IMG/VR virus record: IMGVR_UViG_3300036770_005931
Location: 1-51,865 of that record
Length of the DNA stretch: 51,865 bases
Direction: 5' to 3' (one strand)
From: a virus
Of the stretch, positions 1,219 through 40,848 are shown piece by piece. Both the position numbers and the translations under genes were made by a program. Each line of letters begins with the position of its first letter. The stretch's first letter is position 1. Under the pieces are notes generated by a model. That model did not search any database and was not told the DNA's origin. It worked only from the letters and a program-made list of their open reading frames with translations.

Positions 1219-1230
1219 ACTTGCTGACGA

Positions 1231-1285
1231 CAAGCAAACGCTTGCCCTGTACAAGCAAGTGCTTGCTCTGTACAAGCGTTAGGCG
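1231..1285 (+). repeat. 21-bp iterons with CAAGC-N4-GCTTG palindromes
   Basis: CAAGC occurs at 1231, 1252 and 1273, exactly 21 bp apart. The first two units are near-identical and contain perfect CAAGC-N4-GCTTG palindromes followed by CYCTGTA. The third unit is degenerate after its first half. Iterons of this size are typical binding sites for replication initiators. Confidence 0.7.
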
Positions 1286-1301
1286 TGCCTGACAGGTGTG
1301 A

Positions 1302-1377
1302 CGAACAGATGTTCGGTGCGAACGTGTGTACGACGAACAGATGTACGACGAACGTGTGTTCTGCGAACAGGTGTTCT
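1302..1377 (+). repeat. Five-copy 15-bp array of LexA-like sites
   Basis: Sites start at 1302, 1319, 1334, 1349 and 1364 (spacing 17, 15, 15, 15). Each is CGAAC-N4-GT(T/A)C. The first is a perfect CGAAC-N4-GTTCG palindrome, the fourth and fifth keep GAAC-N4-GTTC, and the second and third end in GTACG. Centres alternate between AGAT/AGGT and GTGT. The form matches the actinobacterial LexA box core. The regular phasing suggests cooperative binding of one protein. Confidence 0.7.
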
Positions 1378-1534
1378 GTGGATAAAGGTGTGGATAACGC
1401 CTTGTGGATGACGCCTGTGGATAAGGTTGAGGTTGTCCCCAGGCTGTGGACGAACCTGTGGACAATGTGGCTGTGGACAAACCCTGTGGACGACGACGAG
1501 GTTATCAACAGGCTGTGGATAAGGCTGTGGATAA
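1377..1534 (-). repeat. DnaA-box cluster
   Basis: Five exact copies of the consensus DnaA box TTATCCACA lie on the minus strand (ending at 1377, 1389, 1416, 1514 and 1526 on the plus coordinate as TGTGGATAA). Near-matches are at 1403, 1445, 1457, 1472 and 1485, and one plus-strand near-match, TTATCAACA, is at 1502. Spacing is mostly 12-15 bp with two 28-29-bp gaps. Such density is a hallmark of DnaA-dependent origins. Confidence 0.75.
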
Positions 1535-1659
1535 CTTTCGAAGCACGAGATGGGGGTTGGGCATCCAAATCGTGGCAAATCGAAGGTGCGGGGCTTTTTC
1601 GCGAAGCGTCCGGCATATGGGGGGCGCACCCATACAACCTCTATTGCACGATTCTTAAA

Positions 1660-4516: not shown

Positions 4517-4724
4517 TCCGGGTTTCTTGGGCGGTAATCCATACTCTCGCTCCGCAGGAGTCTGGTTCATCGGATTGCACGATGGTGGCGGCAACTTGCT
4601 CGCAACCACACGGGCAGATGATGTCCAGGCTCCTGTGGTGTGTGGAGCCTTTGTAGGTGCGGTCAATGATGGCGTCTTCGCCCTTTTTGATGTTTTGTTG
4701 GTGGACGTGAACGATGTGCTTCAT
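4491..4724 (-). CDS. Conserved actinophage-type small protein, SCGARVW family (77 aa)
   Basis: The pattern HVHQQNIKK near the N-terminus, a central YKG segment and a C-terminal SCGARVWI resembles a small protein of unknown function that I recall as widespread in actinobacteriophages (HVNQHVI ... SCGARVWIET). This copy has an additional CPCGC cluster in the middle that may bind metal. The start at 4724 has an AAGG ribosome binding site. The repeat array begins 70 bp upstream, so read-through from that side could transcribe the gene. Confidence 0.65.
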   Translation of the reverse strand: MKHIVHVHQQNIKKGEDAIIDRTYKGSTHHRSLDIICPCGCEQVAATIVQSDEPDSCGARVWITAQETRTTPSVSHK

Positions 4725-4793
4725 GAGAGCCTTTTTTAAAAAAATTTTTGGGCGCCTGTGGTGGTCGGATTTTTAAGAACGCTTCGTCGCTTT

Positions 4794-6146
4794 GGTTCTC
4801 TTCAACGGTCTGGCTCGTTCTTCATTCGTGGGTATCTCTTCAACTGCGACTCGTTCGCGGTCTATTGGCTCTCTCCGATTGTGCGACTCACTCGATTGCG
4901 TCGGTTCTCTCTCAAACAATGGTTCATTTACTGTGAATGGTGCTCTTGCCTCTGTTGATTCACTACCTGTTATTGGTGCTCTTGCCTCTGATGGTTCATT
5001 CAGGCGTTTTGGGTACTCGGGGTCAATGATTCGTTTACCCTAGATGGTTGTCTCGTGGACCGCGACTCACTCCCGGTTCTTGGTTTTCTTCGGGCGAATG
5101 GTTCGCACGCAAAAGATGGTTCTCTCTCGTTTGTCGGCTCACACGAATCTCACGGTTCTCTCATCACTATTGGTTCATTCGGTTGTTTTGGTTCTCTCCC
5201 AAGACCCGATTCACTCTGGTCTATTGCCACTATCTCCATGTGTGGTTCGCATGTCGTACACGGTGCACTCTCTGGTATGGCTCACTCCGCAATCTGGTTC
5301 GCTTGTGTTTTCCGGTTCACTTTCCTGGGCTGGTGCTCTCACTTCTGTCGGTTCAATCGGGGAATTACGGATTTCTCTTCGCACGCGTTTCGTTATATGT
5401 GGTCTGGTTCTCTCACTCGTTCTGACTCACTCTTTTTCAACGGCGCTCTTCGTCCTCACGGTTCATTTTCGTCTAGCGGTGCTCTCGTGTCACACGATTC
5501 AATCAGCAGTAAAGGTGCTCTCGTTTCTTGTGTTTCGTTTCCCTCGTCTGGTTCTCTTACAGTGCGCGACTCACTCTTAGCGGTTGGTTCTCTTCCTGAC
5601 TCCTGGTTCGTTCCGACATACCGGTTCTCTTCGCAACTATGACTCACTCAAGTCACATGGAACTCTTCTCTCTACGCGGTTCATTCATTGAGGCTGGTGC
5701 TCTTCCGAGTCCTGATTCGCTCTTTTCACACGGTTCTCTTTGGTCACACGGCTCATTCGCCCCTCTAGGGTCTCTTAGTCAGCGTGATTCATTCGTCAAG
5801 AATGGCGCTCTCATATCCGTTGATTCACTTCTCTGCCCTTGGTTCTCTCAAGACCAGTGGTTCATTCCCGATGTACGGCACTCTAAAAGTCAATGATTCA
5901 CTCAGGGGTGTTGGTGCAATTGTGGCAAGTGGTTCATTCAAGGGGTGTGGTGCGCTTGTGCATCTTGATTCATTCAGCAAGGACGGTACGCTTGTTGGAA
6001 GTGATTCATTCTAGGGGTGCGGAACTCTTCTTCATTTTGATTCATTCGCGGTTTATGGTACTCATAGGTCGCAGGATTCATTTTCGAGGGGCGGTTATCT
6101 CAAGAGCAATGATTCACTTGGCCGTGCTGGTTCTCTCTACTTCCTC
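4794..6146 (+). repeat. Alternating 18-bp / 36-bp tandem array, about 75 units
   Basis: By hand parsing there are about 75 consecutive units, nearly all exactly 18 bp. Each has a conserved 9-bp half and a different 9-bp half. Two unit types alternate without exception: A-type near GGTTCTCTY (variants GGTGCTCTT, GGCGCTCTC) and B-type near GATTCAYTC (variants GGTTCATTC, GACTCACTC). The true period is therefore 36 bp. About nine units have 17 or 19 bp (for example at 4848, 5011, 5262, 5279, 5368, 5387, 5586, 5659, 5822). Read in phase, units encode [GD]-S-[FL]-xxx / G-[SA]-L-xxx hexapeptides with only one in-phase stop (unit at about 6003) before a TGA just after the last unit. The length slips prevent one continuous reading frame. 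It could be a decayed or frameshifted repeat-protein gene, a binding-site array or a non-coding RNA. Confidence 0.9.
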
Positions 6147-6332
6147 GGTTGAAGAACTAAAAGCCTGACCATCCATGTCCATCAACGCCCAATAGGCGTC
6201 TTTGTAACATGGAAAGTCAGACTCAAAGATGATTTCGTCCCCGTCCTCCAGGGTACCGATGACCCAACCGCCACGGTATGGCGTGATACGGATGGTGTAC
6301 ACCAGCCCCTGAAGGAGAGGAACATTATTCAT
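6114..6332 (-). CDS. Hypothetical small protein (72 aa)
   Basis: Starts at an ATG that shares its A with the stop of the IS110-like gene (TGATG), which implies translational coupling. The product begins MNNVPLLQGLVYTIRITPY and looks like a small beta-rich domain. Its last 11 codons run into the repeat array, so its C-terminus is encoded by the final two array units. I do not recognise the family. Confidence 0.65.
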   Translation of the reverse strand: MNNVPLLQGLVYTIRITPYRGGWVIGTLEDGDEIIFESDFPCYKDAYWALMDMDGQAFSSSTEEVERTSTAK

Positions 6333-7195
6333 CACGCCGCCTTGTATCCGGGCGGAGCGATGTAGTGAGCGTGACCGCCGTGCTCAATGATGTAGGGCTT
6401 CGGCGGTGCGGTGTTGAAGTGAGCCTCATAGGCAACATGGTGCCAGTGGGCAAGGAACAACTTCGTGGCGTAGCGTGACGCTTGCGAGAGGATTCGACCC
6501 TGGGGCAAACGGCCAGCCTCGTAAGCCTCACGAGTTGCCTTGTCCTTGATGTTCTTCTCACGCAATGTCTGTGCGGCCAGTTCGGCATAGTCGCCAGCCT
6601 CGTTCTTCGCCATGCGACGCTCCTTGTCCTGCACATACAACTTGCCGTAGAACGCATCGTCCTTACCAGACACCTTGATGAACGACTGACCAATCTTCCA
6701 GCAGATGGTCTTCAGTTCAGCATTCCACGGACGCTTCTCGCCCTTGTTCCACTTGCTAGTCGGGTCAAGACCGGCATAGCGCCAGATGTGACCGACAGTG
6801 GGGGCCTTCGTGATGTCAATATGGGAGAGGAGACCGGCAGCAAGTACCGGGCCAATGCCCATCTGCGAGAGCGACCAGCGCCCGACCTCGTGCGCCTCGG
6901 CGTAAGCCTGAAGGGCAGGGACAATGGACTTCTCCACAGTGTGAATCTGACCGTAGTAGTACTCAATCAGGACGCTGTCATCCTCGTCGTAAAGGATTGA
7001 GGAAACCTGGTTGCCAAGAGCAATACGATGCTCCTGGATACGGTAGTAGTAGTCAACAAGCGCACCGGCCTGGCGACGGTCGAGTGTTCCAGACTTGCGG
7101 ACGAGGTCCTTGTCCAGACGCTTGATGATTTCGGGTCCGGCGAACTCAACCGTAGTCGGGTCCTCCAGGTGGAACTTCTGCTTTTTGGTAGCCAT
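6332..7195 (-). CDS. IS110-transposase C-terminal-domain-like protein (287 aa)
   Basis: Residues 111-127 (QMGIGPVLAAGLLSHID) form a helix-hairpin-helix like that in the C-terminal domain of IS110/IS116/IS902 transposases. WRYAGLDP (138-145) matches the conserved block that follows it. The N-terminal DEDD RuvC-like domain of IS110 is absent: residues 1-105 form helices instead. The serine-containing QSG segment expected after AGLxP is replaced by SKWNKGE. No element ends are evident, so this is probably a domesticated phage protein and not an active insertion sequence. It has a strong promoter and ribosome binding site, and is followed by a coupled small gene and then the tandem array on the same strand. 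Confidence 0.75.
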   Translation of the reverse strand: MATKKQKFHLEDPTTVEFAGPEIIKRLDKDLVRKSGTLDRRQAGALVDYYYRIQEHRIALGNQVSSILYDEDDSVLIEYYYGQIHTVEKSIVPALQAYAEAHEVGRWSLSQMGIGPVLAAGLLSHIDITKAPTVGHIWRYAGLDPTSKWNKGEKRPWNAELKTICWKIGQSFIKVSGKDDAFYGKLYVQDKERRMAKNEAGDYAELAAQTLREKNIKDKATREAYEAGRLPQGRILSQASRYATKLFLAHWHHVAYEAHFNTAPPKPYIIEHGGHAHYIAPPGYKAA

Positions 7196-7246
7196 GATGG
7201 GCTCTCCCTTTTGATAGTTGTTAGTTGTGGCTATATGCCGAAAGAG

Positions 7247-7275
7247 ATAGTACAGACACCTCAGGAAAGTGTCAA
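7247..7275 (-). promoter_or_regulatory. Strong promoter for the IS110-like operon
   Basis: Minus-strand TTGACA (7270-7275) and TACTAT (7247-7252) with a 17-bp spacer. The start codon is about 50 bp downstream, preceded by AAAGGGAGAG. I see no intrinsic terminator between this operon and the tandem array. Confidence 0.8.
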
Positions 7276-7291
7276 CCTTTCAGCGAAAAAA

Positions 7292-7915
7292 TCAGGAAGA
7301 AATTTCGTCCCTGATTGACCTGATGATGTCCCCAGTCTGACGCTTGTAGTGGGTGCGCCAGTCCGGAGAGTTCTTATAGGAATTGTTGTTGTTGTTCAGA
7401 ACGACCATATGCCCCTGTTTCAGGGAAATATGGAACCAAGAATTTGGGCTTTCTTCGGTGAGCACAAAGGGATAGGTGACCTCTTCTCGTGGAACCACGA
7501 GAGAGCCCCCAGTTTCAATCCCACGGCCAACTCGGTCAAACTGATAGGCGGTCAGGTCTACATAGAAAGATTCGGTGACGACCACCAAGTGGCCATCAAA
7601 ACCATTCCCATCTCTGTTGTCGTTCCCAGTGGCAACCATATTGTCGCCAAATCCAACACCGACACTCCAAGCGTCGGCATCCCATTCTTTGAAGTAGAGA
7701 CCGGCCCGCTGGTGGGCGAGCATCTTGTCATTCATGGCCATAGCGGCCATGGGTATTACCTCATGCTTGATGCCGAAGTAGGTGAAGACCTCGCTGGCGA
7801 TACGGGCAGATAGAACGCAAGCGTTAGGCATCACCTGTGGTCGAACTTCTGAGTTCCAGAGGCGGACTAATGGGTCAATGATGGTTTTTTCGGACTCAGC
7901 GAGAATGGTTGTCAC
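7292..7915 (-). CDS. Putative papain-like-fold protein (207 aa)
   Basis: C33 at the head of a helix (NACVLSARIA), H109 before a strand (GHLVVV) and D120 (YVDLTA) are ordered as the Cys-His-Asp triad of papain-like folds (transglutaminase, NlpC and related hydrolases). The substrate is unknown: it could be a protease, an amidase or an inactive homologue. The start overlaps the preceding gene's stop by 4 nt (ATGA), so it forms a two-gene operon with the winged-helix gene. Confidence 0.6.
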   Translation of the reverse strand: MTTILAESEKTIIDPLVRLWNSEVRPQVMPNACVLSARIASEVFTYFGIKHEVIPMAAMAMNDKMLAHQRAGLYFKEWDADAWSVGVGFGDNMVATGNDNRDGNGFDGHLVVVTESFYVDLTAYQFDRVGRGIETGGSLVVPREEVTYPFVLTEESPNSWFHISLKQGHMVVLNNNNNSYKNSPDWRTHYKRQTGDIIRSIRDEISS

Positions 7916-8763: not shown

Positions 8764-10620
8764 TTACCTTCCCTGACGCATCCCAATAGCGTCCGATAGC
8801 ATGTCTGGATAGGATTCTAGCATTTCAATACGCATTCGCGCAACTGTTCTTAGAGCATCTAAGTGTGCTTTTTCAGTAGCGGTAAGAGGAATACCTCTTT
8901 TTTCAAAGTTGCTTGGGTCAAGTAGGGAATCAAGATTTTCCTTGATTCGTTCAAGCGCCTGGTTTACACCTTCGGAAAACTGTTCACCCTCTCCGTCAAC
9001 ATCACCAATTCGGTTATATGCGTTCATGACTGCTTGGTCCAAAATGAGGTAGTTCTCCTGTGAGTTTTTCAATACATCATCAATGGACATATTTGCCCTC
9101 TTCATAGCAAGGGCTCGAATTTGCTCGGGAGTGGCGTCGTCACCCCAGTCACCAAGACCATCGTAAACGCGCCCGCCCATCAATAAGCCATTATCAATGA
9201 TTCCCAGACGCTGTGAGCCATCATCGTCAATGGCAACCATGATGTTGCCTCCGTGCCGGTCTGTATTGTCAAGAATAAAGTCCATAGCGAGGATTTGGCC
9301 TAGGTCTGCAAGGTTGACGGTTCGGGAGTCAATTCCCCCGGCGTTATGAGAGTCAAGCCAACTCAGATTCTTGCCCTTTCCGTCGCCCCACGCATCAACA
9401 TTGCGCATCGCAGTCCAGCGGATGTTTCTCTCTCCAACACGCGTCACTTTGACATTTGGGCTAATTCGAATATGTCTGGAGTCTGGCTGAGCCGCGAGGT
9501 CAAGAAGTTGACCGGCACGCATTCCGATGTCTTCCATCATTGCATCGTTCGCGCCATATGTGCTTGCCTTGAGATACCAAATGGCACCAGTTTCTTTGTC
9601 AGTGAATTTGTAGACTCGCCACAAACCACCTAACTCATCGTCTTGTAAGGCATCCGACTTCATCTGCACGATTCGGAATCGTCGGTTCTCAATTTGAATG
9701 CCGTCGCTCACCTTGTAGGTGCCGTCCATAATTGATTCAAATGTGACTGGCGAACCATCAGGAAGCATGAGTTCATCGCCACCGAACGATAAATCCTCGT
9801 CAAACATTACAGCGGCAAAAAGGTCATCGGAAAGGTCATCAATGCTTCCGTTGTTGTAGTGAATGTCAACGACTGCGTCCCGGTACTTCAAGTCGTCAAT
9901 GTCAATATCGCGTGGACCGATAAGTCCAGCCTTAATGTCTCCCTGGTCGGTCTGTTCGGCTTTTGGACGCTGGTACGGCATTGCCGAAGCCAACTGACCA
10001 AGAACCTCAGAACCGCCCGCCGATGCCAGCAATGCGTTGTACGAGGCTTCATCAAGAACGGCAAACTCCCTTTCCGTTTCAACAACATAGAAAGAACCGC
10101 CCTGGGTCCATACGAGTTCTTTTGCTTTTTCGTCTGCTCGCGCAAAGGCACGGTCACGATTTCCCCGCTTAGGAACAACAAGTTCGCGAGGTAGGCCACG
10201 GATTGCTTGCTCAAGAGATTCTTGTGCTTGTTCAACCGGAGAGGGAGCGGGCTGGGTTGGAGCGGGATTTACGATTTCCCCGACTGTTCGGTATCCCATT
10301 TCCCCAAGGGACCGGTAGCCCATGTCCGAAAGCGAACGAAGTTTTTGAGCCGGTTGCTTGCGAGCCCGAGCGCCTCCCGCAGGCGCTGACGCTCCATACG
10401 AGGGCACGTAATCCACATTGCGACCGCTAGAGTTGACAACACGGAGATTAGGTCGCCCTTCAGAGGTGAGACCACGAGCAATTTCCTTTCCTGCTTCATC
10501 AAGAAGGCGAGTCCCTAAGGGGCGCTCCCACGCTGTGCCTTCCTGGACAATGCCGTCGCCATCGGCGTCTCTTGCGTCTGGGTCGTACGGCTCTATTCGG
10601 AGACGAACTCGGGGTGCCAT
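8764..10620 (-). CDS. PI3/4-kinase-like (HipA-type fold) protein with N-terminal calcium-loop motif (618 aa)
   Basis: The C-terminal half carries the signature of PI3K/PI4K-like and related atypical kinases: a candidate nucleotide-binding Lys in WYLKAS (about residue 345), the catalytic loop D454-R-H-x2-N459 and the metal-binding D476-N-G. The N-terminus has DADGDG at residues 18-23, an EF-hand/dockerin-like calcium loop that I have also seen in actinophage structural proteins. Between them are a Pro/Ala linker, a repeated YRSLGEMGYR-type motif and a helical region. It may phosphorylate protein or lipid, possibly a host target, or be a virion-associated effector. The start shares TGATG with the upstream gene. 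The kinase fold is likely; the substrate is unknown. Confidence 0.7.
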   Translation of the reverse strand: MAPRVRLRIEPYDPDARDADGDGIVQEGTAWERPLGTRLLDEAGKEIARGLTSEGRPNLRVVNSSGRNVDYVPSYGASAPAGGARARKQPAQKLRSLSDMGYRSLGEMGYRTVGEIVNPAPTQPAPSPVEQAQESLEQAIRGLPRELVVPKRGNRDRAFARADEKAKELVWTQGGSFYVVETEREFAVLDEASYNALLASAGGSEVLGQLASAMPYQRPKAEQTDQGDIKAGLIGPRDIDIDDLKYRDAVVDIHYNNGSIDDLSDDLFAAVMFDEDLSFGGDELMLPDGSPVTFESIMDGTYKVSDGIQIENRRFRIVQMKSDALQDDELGGLWRVYKFTDKETGAIWYLKASTYGANDAMMEDIGMRAGQLLDLAAQPDSRHIRISPNVKVTRVGERNIRWTAMRNVDAWGDGKGKNLSWLDSHNAGGIDSRTVNLADLGQILAMDFILDNTDRHGGNIMVAIDDDGSQRLGIIDNGLLMGGRVYDGLGDWGDDATPEQIRALAMKRANMSIDDVLKNSQENYLILDQAVMNAYNRIGDVDGEGEQFSEGVNQALERIKENLDSLLDPSNFEKRGIPLTATEKAHLDALRTVARMRIEMLESYPDMLSDAIGMRQGR

Positions 10621-31277: not shown

Positions 31278-32549
31278 ATGGCATTCAAATATAGGCCATA
31301 CAGCGAAGAATTTCAGCGAGACCCTCACGCTACTTATTCATACATGAGGGAGTATGAGCCGGTTCACTGGTCAAATCCCGACTTGGTTTATGTGACCAGG
31401 TATGAGCATGTTATCCAGACGCTGAGGAACCCCAAATCAAGCGTGCAATTTATGGATTATTGCGAGCGGGGAGCATCCGAATATGTCAAGGGAATCCGTG
31501 AACTTCGCGAGAAGGACCCGACTATTGGCAGTTTTACCACCATGCTCCGAAGCGATAATCCCGCCCATGACAGGATGAAGCATCTAACGATTCCTCATTT
31601 CTCCCATCAAAAAATTAATGAACTTGCTGGCCACATTGAAACAATAGTCCAAAAGCGAATCAATTCCCTGAGTAATCATTCAAGAGTAAATATCGCTCAG
31701 GAAATGTCTCGCCACATTCCAGTTGACACGATTTGCCACATTCTTGGTCTTCCCGATGAGGATAAGGAGATGTTAACCAATTGGGCGCATTCCTTGACTC
31801 TCATTGTTGAGCCGCTTCAGTCGTCAACTGATGGAATAGAGCGTGTTCTGGAGATGCTTCCAGACACAATCATGTACTTGGTCAATCGATTGGAGGAGAG
31901 GCGCTCCAATCCAAGAGAGAACGATGTTGTCACTGATTTGGTTCTAGGCGAGGTTGACGGCAAGCCTCTTCCTTATGAAGAAATCGTGTCTACCGTTGGC
32001 CTTCTCTTTATGGCAGGAATTGAGACCACACTGTTTTTTATGGCCAATGCTCTACATACATTGACCGTGAATAAAAAGGCGCGCAGGGAATTTATTGACA
32101 TTACTAGCCAGGCACGTTCGCAGGGTGTGGCATTTTATTCCGACAAAAAATGCATGAACGCCATTGATGAATTGCTCCGATATTCCGGCTCAGTTTGGAT
32201 TACTGGTCGAGCCAACCTAGAAGATTATGTGTACGAGGTTGACAATGGAAAAGTGACCGTACCAAAGGGTTCTTTGATTACGACAGTGATGGCGTCAGCA
32301 AACAGGGACCCAAGAATTTTTAAGAATCCTGAGGAGATTGATTTTGCGCGCGATAATGCCCATAGGCAACTCACTTTTAGTGCTGGCGTTCACTATTGCC
32401 TTGGGTCACATCTGGCTCGTCTTGAATCACTAATTTTGCTTGACAGGTTCTTCACTCAGTTCCCGGAGGTTGAACTACTTGAAGAGCCGGTATGGCGAAC
32501 ACGCCTGACATTCCGAGGAATTGAAGACCTCATAGTAAAATTGGCCTAG
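31278..32549 (+). CDS. Cytochrome P450 (423 aa)
   Basis: A heme monooxygenase of the soluble bacterial class. The I-helix oxygen-activation motif A246-G-I-E249-T-T251, the K-helix E298-L-L-R301 and the heme-ligand loop FSAGVHYC374LG are all intact, as is an HxxxR-type segment (HDRMKH) near residue 100. Length is normal for the family and no membrane anchor is present. It needs electrons from a ferredoxin or similar partner, none of which is visible here, so a host partner is likely. It is encoded on the plus strand inside a minus-strand fibre region and is coupled to a glycosyltransferase gene (TAGTG). The substrate is unknown. Confidence 0.95.
   Translation: MAFKYRPYSEEFQRDPHATYSYMREYEPVHWSNPDLVYVTRYEHVIQTLRNPKSSVQFMDYCERGASEYVKGIRELREKDPTIGSFTTMLRSDNPAHDRMKHLTIPHFSHQKINELAGHIETIVQKRINSLSNHSRVNIAQEMSRHIPVDTICHILGLPDEDKEMLTNWAHSLTLIVEPLQSSTDGIERVLEMLPDTIMYLVNRLEERRSNPRENDVVTDLVLGEVDGKPLPYEEIVSTVGLLFMAGIETTLFFMANALHTLTVNKKARREFIDITSQARSQGVAFYSDKKCMNAIDELLRYSGSVWITGRANLEDYVYEVDNGKVTVPKGSLITTVMASANRDPRIFKNPEEIDFARDNAHRQLTFSAGVHYCLGSHLARLESLILLDRFFTQFPEVELLEEPVWRTRLTFRGIEDLIVKLA

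Positions 32550-34971: not shown

Positions 34972-40848
<5,877 letters not shown>

What the first reader, a model, noticed from the sequence alone, without database searches (positions are those of the whole stretch)
4794..6146. A 1.35-kb array of about 75 units with an 18-bp period and strict A/B alternation
Each unit has a conserved 9-bp half and a variable 9-bp half. A-type halves (near GGTTCTCTY) and B-type halves (near GATTCAYTC) alternate without exception across the array, giving a 36-bp dimer. Variable halves do not repeat between units, apart from a near-identical pair in the A-type units at about 4939 and 4975. This is neither a CRISPR (units too short) nor ordinary microsatellite DNA. 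I know of no described phage element of this form.
Basis: seen in the sequence. Interest (0 to 1): 0.93.

Follow-up and report, generated by a model that had tools for sequence, protein, structure and literature searches.

The report
A phage TIGR-TasA guide-RNA array
The repeat array encodes 38 short two-part guide RNAs for a DNA-binding protein made by the gene just upstream of it, a member of the TIGR-Tas family described in 2025; comparing about 80 related arrays shows that these guides are gained, lost and swapped as whole units cut exactly where each guide RNA ends.

Summary
The array is real (lag-36 z = 13.5), but it is not an unknown element. It is a dual-repeat TIGR array, transcribed from the minus strand. 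It lies just downstream of a 287-aa Nop-domain protein with no nuclease domain (6332-7195, minus): a TasA. That protein matches solved TasR and TasH by sequence (E 3e-18 and 2e-10) and by fold, and the paper describing TIGR-Tas fits closely (PMC12045711).

I refined the anatomy to 10-nt repeats and 8-nt spacers. The array holds 38 units. In all 38, the 3' half of one edge pairs with the 5' half of the next through two covarying Watson-Crick pairs, so the encoded 36-nt tigRNA can be read from sequence alone.

Seventy-eight related arrays all lie on the tas strand. Sister arrays gain, lose or replace whole edge-A-loop-B units (52:1), with breakpoints at the edge centre. So both spacers are inherited together even without a nuclease. 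No natural target was found. The member is new and the kind is known; the unit-wise turnover bears on questions the discovery paper left open.

The parts
4775..6155 (-). TIGR array: 38 units of edge repeat (GARYGARYCR) - spacer A (8 nt) - loop repeat (RAGAGMACCR) - spacer B (8 nt), read on the minus strand
   Evidence: Segmentation and position-specific conservation; 38/38 covarying closing pairs; same strand as tas in 78/78 related arrays
6115..6150 (-). first 36-nt tigRNA unit; its left edge is 5'-truncated (about 6146-6155)
   Evidence: a 5'-truncated edge at the array start is a published TIGR feature
4780..4815 (-). last 36-nt tigRNA unit; its right edge is 3'-truncated (AAGCG, then TTCTTAAAAA), and no canonical terminator is found
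6332..7195 (-). tasA: 287-aa Nop-domain protein, no RuvC or HNH domain
   Evidence: phmmer to TaTasR 9mty E 3e-18 and TasH 21kl E 2.4e-10; Foldseek best hits TasR and TasH, probability 1.00; PHROG 4285 E 3e-48; Pfam Transposase_20 just below its cutoff
6114..6335 (-). 73-aa conserved ORF of unknown function between tasA and the array, overlapping the first unit
   Evidence: Also present in L002 and L003 by reading; no Pfam or PHROG match
7247..7275 (-). candidate sigma-70-type promoter (TTGACA-17-TACTAT) upstream of tasA
   Evidence: consensus match only, and the number of matches found equals chance

Best explanation
This is a phage-borne TIGR-TasA system. The minus strand is transcribed from tasA through the array. 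The precursor RNA is cut in the middle of each edge repeat into 38 different 36-nt tigRNAs. Each tigRNA is closed by two base pairs between the halves of neighbouring edge repeats and is bound by a TasA dimer. Spacers A and B then pair with opposite strands of one split DNA target of about 16-18 bp. TasA has no nuclease, so the complex most likely binds and bends the target and blocks its transcription or replication, probably in competing mobile elements. Shown here: the family of the protein, the array architecture, the RNA strand, the closing pairs, and the inheritance of A and B as one unit. Inferred from the published relatives: processing, dimer binding and target geometry. Conjecture: who the targets are, and the blocking role (competition with other mobile elements, about 0.5).
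For: TasA matches TasR and TasH by sequence and fold. A homologous array lies next to tas in at least 78 related loci, always on the tas strand, including Salicola phage CGphi29, the source of the published SpTIGR/TasH. Edge positions 3 and 4 of copy i+1 pair with positions 8 and 7 of copy i in 38/38 units of this array, using five pair combinations, with no covariation within the same copy. The same holds in 74 arrays and 1,613 units: 92% and 95% Watson-Crick against 73% and 75% expected from composition. G.U wobbles on the tas strand outnumber the A.C cells that would be wobbles on the other strand, 99 to 27. Units turn over in edge phase 52:1, with breakpoints at the edge centre.
Against: No expression data. 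No target was found in about 1.5 Mb of related phage and prophage-flank DNA or for three prophage guides in their host genomes. No canonical terminator follows the array. Spacers are 8 nt rather than the usual 9, although the published SpTIGR is also 8.
Confidence: 0.95

Rival explanations
1. The array is a DNA element: protein-binding sites such as replication iterons or a partition centromere, with spacers of no meaning.
For: Long tandem arrays of short motifs are typical of origins and centromeres; some TIGR loci are operonic with ParB-like genes (PMC12045711).
Against: The edge halves covary as base pairs between neighbouring copies, 38/38, with no signal inside a copy, which a DNA-binding site would not need. 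Arrays follow the tas strand in 78/78 loci. Spacers are conserved unit by unit between sister phages.
Confidence: 0.02
2. TasA with its guides regulates genes of the host or of the phage itself, rather than attacking competitors.
For: No nuclease; many spacers are retained between sister phages (51 of 74 with at most 2 changes).
Against: No match in the window or sister phages in the right geometry. Three guides from prophages in Halomonas, an acidobacterium and Propionivibrio have no exact match in their own host genomes. Unit turnover is high, and changes in retained spacers show no codon periodicity (23/87 at multiples of 3).
Confidence: 0.25
3. TasA with its guides helps phage recombination or integration by bending DNA at guided sites.
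For: Nop and IS110 kinship and the roughly 180-degree DNA bend in TasR (PMC12045711).
Confidence: 0.08
4. The array is a degenerating coding repeat.
For: The 18-bp period keeps a reading frame over stretches (ORFs).
Against: Frequent 17- and 19-bp steps and stops break every frame; the inter-copy base-pair covariation is unexplained.
Confidence: 0.005

Closest known systems
TIGR-TasA (Flavonifractor plautii FpTIGR, Faure et al. 2025, PMC12045711)
   Same: Nuclease-less Nop-domain protein next to a dual-repeat array of alternating edge and loop repeats with a 36-nt period.
   Different: Actinophage-like genome; 38 units against the usual 5-15; 8-nt spacers; edge repeats vary from unit to unit with compensating closing pairs.
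TIGR-TasH of Salicola phage CGphi29 (SpTIGR)
   Same: 10-nt repeats and 8-nt spacers, nearly the same repeats (AAGACAACCA / AAGCGAGCCA against RAGAGMACCR / GARYGARYCR), array downstream on the tas strand.
   Different: TasH carries an HNH nuclease; the window protein has none; the Salicola array is shorter and ends in a clear rho-independent terminator.
IS110 transposases with bridge RNA
   Same: Homologous RNA-binding domain (Transposase_20; IS621 fold match) and a two-part guide.
   Different: No DEDD RuvC domain; a long guide array instead of a single bridge RNA.
CRISPR arrays
   Same: Tandem repeats with unique spacers processed into guides.
   Different: Repeats of 10 nt, split 8+8-nt spacers, two repeat types, no cas genes seen, internal unit turnover without strong leader polarity.

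Membership tests
TIGR-Tas | Nop-domain Tas protein encoded next to the array | tested here: met
   Sequence match to TasR 9mty (E 3e-18) and TasH 21kl (E 2.4e-10); fold match probability 1.00; gene about 195 nt from the array
TIGR-Tas | Two distinct alternating repeats of 8-12 nt | tested here: met
   38 loop and 37 full edge repeats, 10 nt each, alternating
TIGR-Tas | Spacers of about 9 nt (exceptions allowed; SpTIGR 8), variable between units | tested here: met
   8-nt spacers with no positional conservation
TIGR-Tas | 36-nt unit closed by base pairs between halves of neighbouring edge repeats, with covariation | tested here: met
   38/38 units paired at both positions; 0/500 shuffles reach the covariation score
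TIGR-Tas | Array starts and ends with truncated edge repeats | tested here: met
   Half edges at about 6146-6155 and 4775-4784 keep the pairing rule
TIGR-Tas | Rho-independent terminator after the array | tested here: not met
   No terminator-like site in 4600-7400. It is described as typical, not required; the Salicola and Microcystis phage arrays do show one
TIGR-Tas | Array transcribed and processed into 36-nt tigRNAs bound by Tas | not testable with these tools
   Needs small-RNA sequencing
TIGR-Tas | Guides act on DNA with A and B pairing to opposite strands | tested here: inconclusive
   No natural targets found; joint inheritance of A and B fits
TasA subtype | Nop domain only, no RuvC or HNH | tested here: met
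   287 aa; no nuclease family in Pfam; the model is helices only, no nuclease fold
CRISPR-Cas | One repeat type of about 25-36 nt with long spacers and cas genes | tested here: not met
   Two 10-nt repeats; no Cas-like Pfam or PHROG match among the proteins scanned
IS110 element | DEDD RuvC transposase domain plus a single bridge RNA | tested here: not met
   Only a partial Transposase_20 match, below the cutoff; a tandem guide array instead

The most novel reading that the evidence does not exclude
TIGR arrays evolve by an active cassette process: new guides enter, leave or replace others as complete 36-nt tigRNA-shaped units with breakpoints at the RNA processing point in the edge centre, possibly through an RNA-derived copy or a site-specific recombination. 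This would be a guide-acquisition route unlike that of CRISPR. My data show the unit and the breakpoints, but do not separate an active process from ordinary recombination followed by selection against mixed-up A/B pairs.
Probability: 0.25. Interest if true: 0.88.

Novelty: new member of a known kind. Interest (0 to 1): 0.55.

Why it matters
The discovery paper names two enigmas: how TIGR arrays emerge and change, and what nuclease-less TasA does. The sister arrays around this locus give direct data on the first. The inherited unit is the mature tigRNA (edge-centre to edge-centre), changes occur along the whole array rather than at one end, and mixed A/B combinations are almost absent. That last point is natural-population evidence that both spacers of a TasA guide work together, so TasA guides appear to be selected for split-target recognition even though the protein cannot cut. 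More than 300 relatives in IMG/VR make this testable at scale.

Tried and rejected
Wrong first labelling: I first called the A-type repeat the edge and paired spacers accordingly. The inter-copy covariation showed the opposite, and the target search was repeated with the right pairing.

Independent replacement of A and B spacers, as it first seemed, was an artefact of that labelling; in the right phase they change together.

Target search: guides from 78 arrays against about 1.17 Mb of related phage DNA, in the published geometry A+rc(B) with gaps 0-2, against three other geometries and permuted pairs, gave no clear enrichment. W, L002 and L003 guides against 0.35 Mb of further relatives gave nothing. 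Three prophage guides against their own host genomes gave nothing. Two 16-nt targets against all IMG/VR gave 45 and 53 hits, judged to be chance, with no clustering of further guide matches. A 16-nt target is too short for collections of that size.

Spacers tracking synonymous changes of coding targets: rejected, 23/87 double changes at multiples of 3 against 25% expected.

Tas in bacterial genomes: the first scan with the single protein found none; with the alignment, 7 loci, among them Halomonas sp. NO4 and Acidobacteriaceae KBS 96.

Full report
The observation. The array is real. Autocorrelation at lag 36 is 0.440 against 0.270 in 1,000 dinucleotide shuffles (z 13.5), and at lag 18 it is 0.390 (z 9.3). 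Segmentation gives 75 alternating half-units. Conservation extends over 10 nt per repeat, leaving 8-nt spacers, and a few steps of 17 or 19 bp interrupt the period.

What it is. The gene just upstream on the minus strand (6332-7195, 287 aa) was the key. It is a weak IS110 Transposase_20 match and belongs to PHROG 4285 'transposase'. In the Protein Data Bank its only sequence relatives are TaTasR (9mty, E 3e-18) and TasH (21kl and others, E 2.4e-10). An AlphaFold model (mean pLDDT 77) has TasR and TasH as its best fold matches, probability 1.00, followed by IS621. TIGR-Tas was described in 2025 (PMC12045711): Nop-domain Tas proteins next to long arrays of two alternating 8-12-nt repeats with short spacers, processed into 36-nt tigRNAs whose two spacers bind opposite DNA strands. 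The window locus fits, with a nuclease-less Tas, that is, TasA.

Which strand, and which repeat is which. In all 78 well-parsed relatives the array lies on the tas strand, often starting at or within a few bases of the tas stop codon. Within this single array, position 3 of each B-type copy pairs with position 8 of the copy before it, and position 4 with position 7, in every unit: 38/38 Watson-Crick at both positions, using A-T, G-C and T-A at the first and T-A and C-G at the second, in five combinations. There is no such relation inside one copy. On 29 units of exactly 36 nt the pairing tool finds 100% of closing cells paired and a covariation score of 0.658, reached in 0 of 500 shuffles and at most 0.293 when the partners are slid. 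So the B-type is the edge repeat, the A-type the loop repeat, and each 36-nt RNA runs from the middle of one edge to the middle of the next. The same holds in 74 arrays and 1,613 units: 92% and 95% Watson-Crick against 73% and 75% expected; G.U cells on the tas strand outnumber A.C cells 99 to 27, as expected if the tas strand is the RNA. The pairing rule also picks out the truncated edges at both ends of the window array, giving 38 guides.

How common. One alignment-based scan of IMG/VR finds 308 candidate stretches that encode relatives; the 80 best were kept and parsed together with the earlier loci. Median array size is 20.5 units and the largest 51, so 38 is long but not extreme. GenBank phages hold three hits: two records of Salicola phage CGphi29 (the published SpTIGR) and Microcystis phage Mvi-JY20, each with an array. 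Seven bacterial genome contigs carry tas with an array, among them Halomonas sp. NO4 and Acidobacteriaceae KBS 96.

How the arrays change. The sister phage L002 (Tas 99% identical) has a co-linear array. In the raw side-by-side comparison 51 of 74 spacers keep at most two changes and the rest are replaced. Aligning sister arrays half-unit by half-unit, changed stretches of even length begin at an edge and end before the next edge 52 times and the reverse once, in 14 pairs that use each array once (sign test p about 1e-14). Simulated events of random phase give 161 to 142 with the same aligner. Junction edges of 59 distinct gains or losses are chimeras: positions 1-5 follow the left edge 37:2, positions 6-10 the right edge 38:9 (some of these events come from overlapping array pairs, so they are not all independent). 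In 16 in-place replacements, the edge halves inside the unit carry 20 substitutions and the halves outside 4. The unit of inheritance is therefore the mature tigRNA itself. Changes are spread along the array with no strong polarity. Shared units between sister arrays keep their order (726 of 754), and a number of arrays hold a second, mostly non-adjacent copy of a unit with both spacers alike. Loop repeats are as well conserved as edges, so the near absence of loop-phased exchanges argues that mixed A/B pairs are selected against, or that the exchange mechanism avoids them.

Function. Established for relatives (PMC12045711): processing to 36 nt needs Tas, and A and B pair with opposite strands. 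Inferred here: the TasA complex binds a split site of about 16-18 bp and blocks without cutting. I think competition with other mobile elements is the most likely role (about half of my belief), gene regulation next. No target was found in about 1.5 Mb of related phage and prophage-flank DNA or, for three guides, in lysogen genomes. Whole-collection scans looked like chance. This is an absence of evidence with low power, not evidence of absence.

Verdict. A new member of a known kind, in an actinophage-like virus (primase relatives mainly from actinophages). What goes beyond the paper, as far as the text I read shows, is the unit-by-unit closing-pair covariation inside single arrays and the whole-tigRNA turnover with edge-centre breakpoints. 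I read parts of the main text and had no access to its supplement, so some of this may be documented there.

Noticed in passing
window 6114-6335 (-): A 73-aa ORF between tasA and the array is kept in L002 and L003; it ends inside or at the first units of the array. No family match; possibly an accessory of this TasA clade.
   Followed up: partly
window 1230-1535: Several copies of TGTGGATAA-like sequences (DnaA-box-like) next to 15-30-bp repeats containing GAACAGATGTTC-type motifs; a candidate phage replication origin.
   Followed up: no
window 31278-32549 (+): A cytochrome P450 (PF00067, E 8e-24), which seems unusual for a tailed phage genome.
   Followed up: partly
window 34972-40842 (-): A 1956-aa protein with long 9/18/27/36-bp coding repeats, collagen-like, probably a tail fibre.
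   Followed up: no
window 8764-10620 (-): A 618-aa protein with a weak PI3/PI4-kinase-like match (E 8e-5).
   Followed up: no
L091 5753-5960: In Candidatus Propionivibrio aalborgensis two guide units share spacer B (CACTGGTA) and differ by one base in spacer A (GAAATAAC / GAAGTAAC), as if covering two alleles of one target or as a duplicated unit.
   Followed up: partly
L008-L010 tas genes: TasA proteins of 342-393 aa with an insertion in the middle of the Nop domain (after the DPT motif); array detection near L009 found nothing and near L010 only five half-units.
   Followed up: no
L025, L028, L031, L032, L043, L074, L045/L088: In these loci the array lies upstream of tas instead of downstream, still on the same strand.
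   Followed up: no
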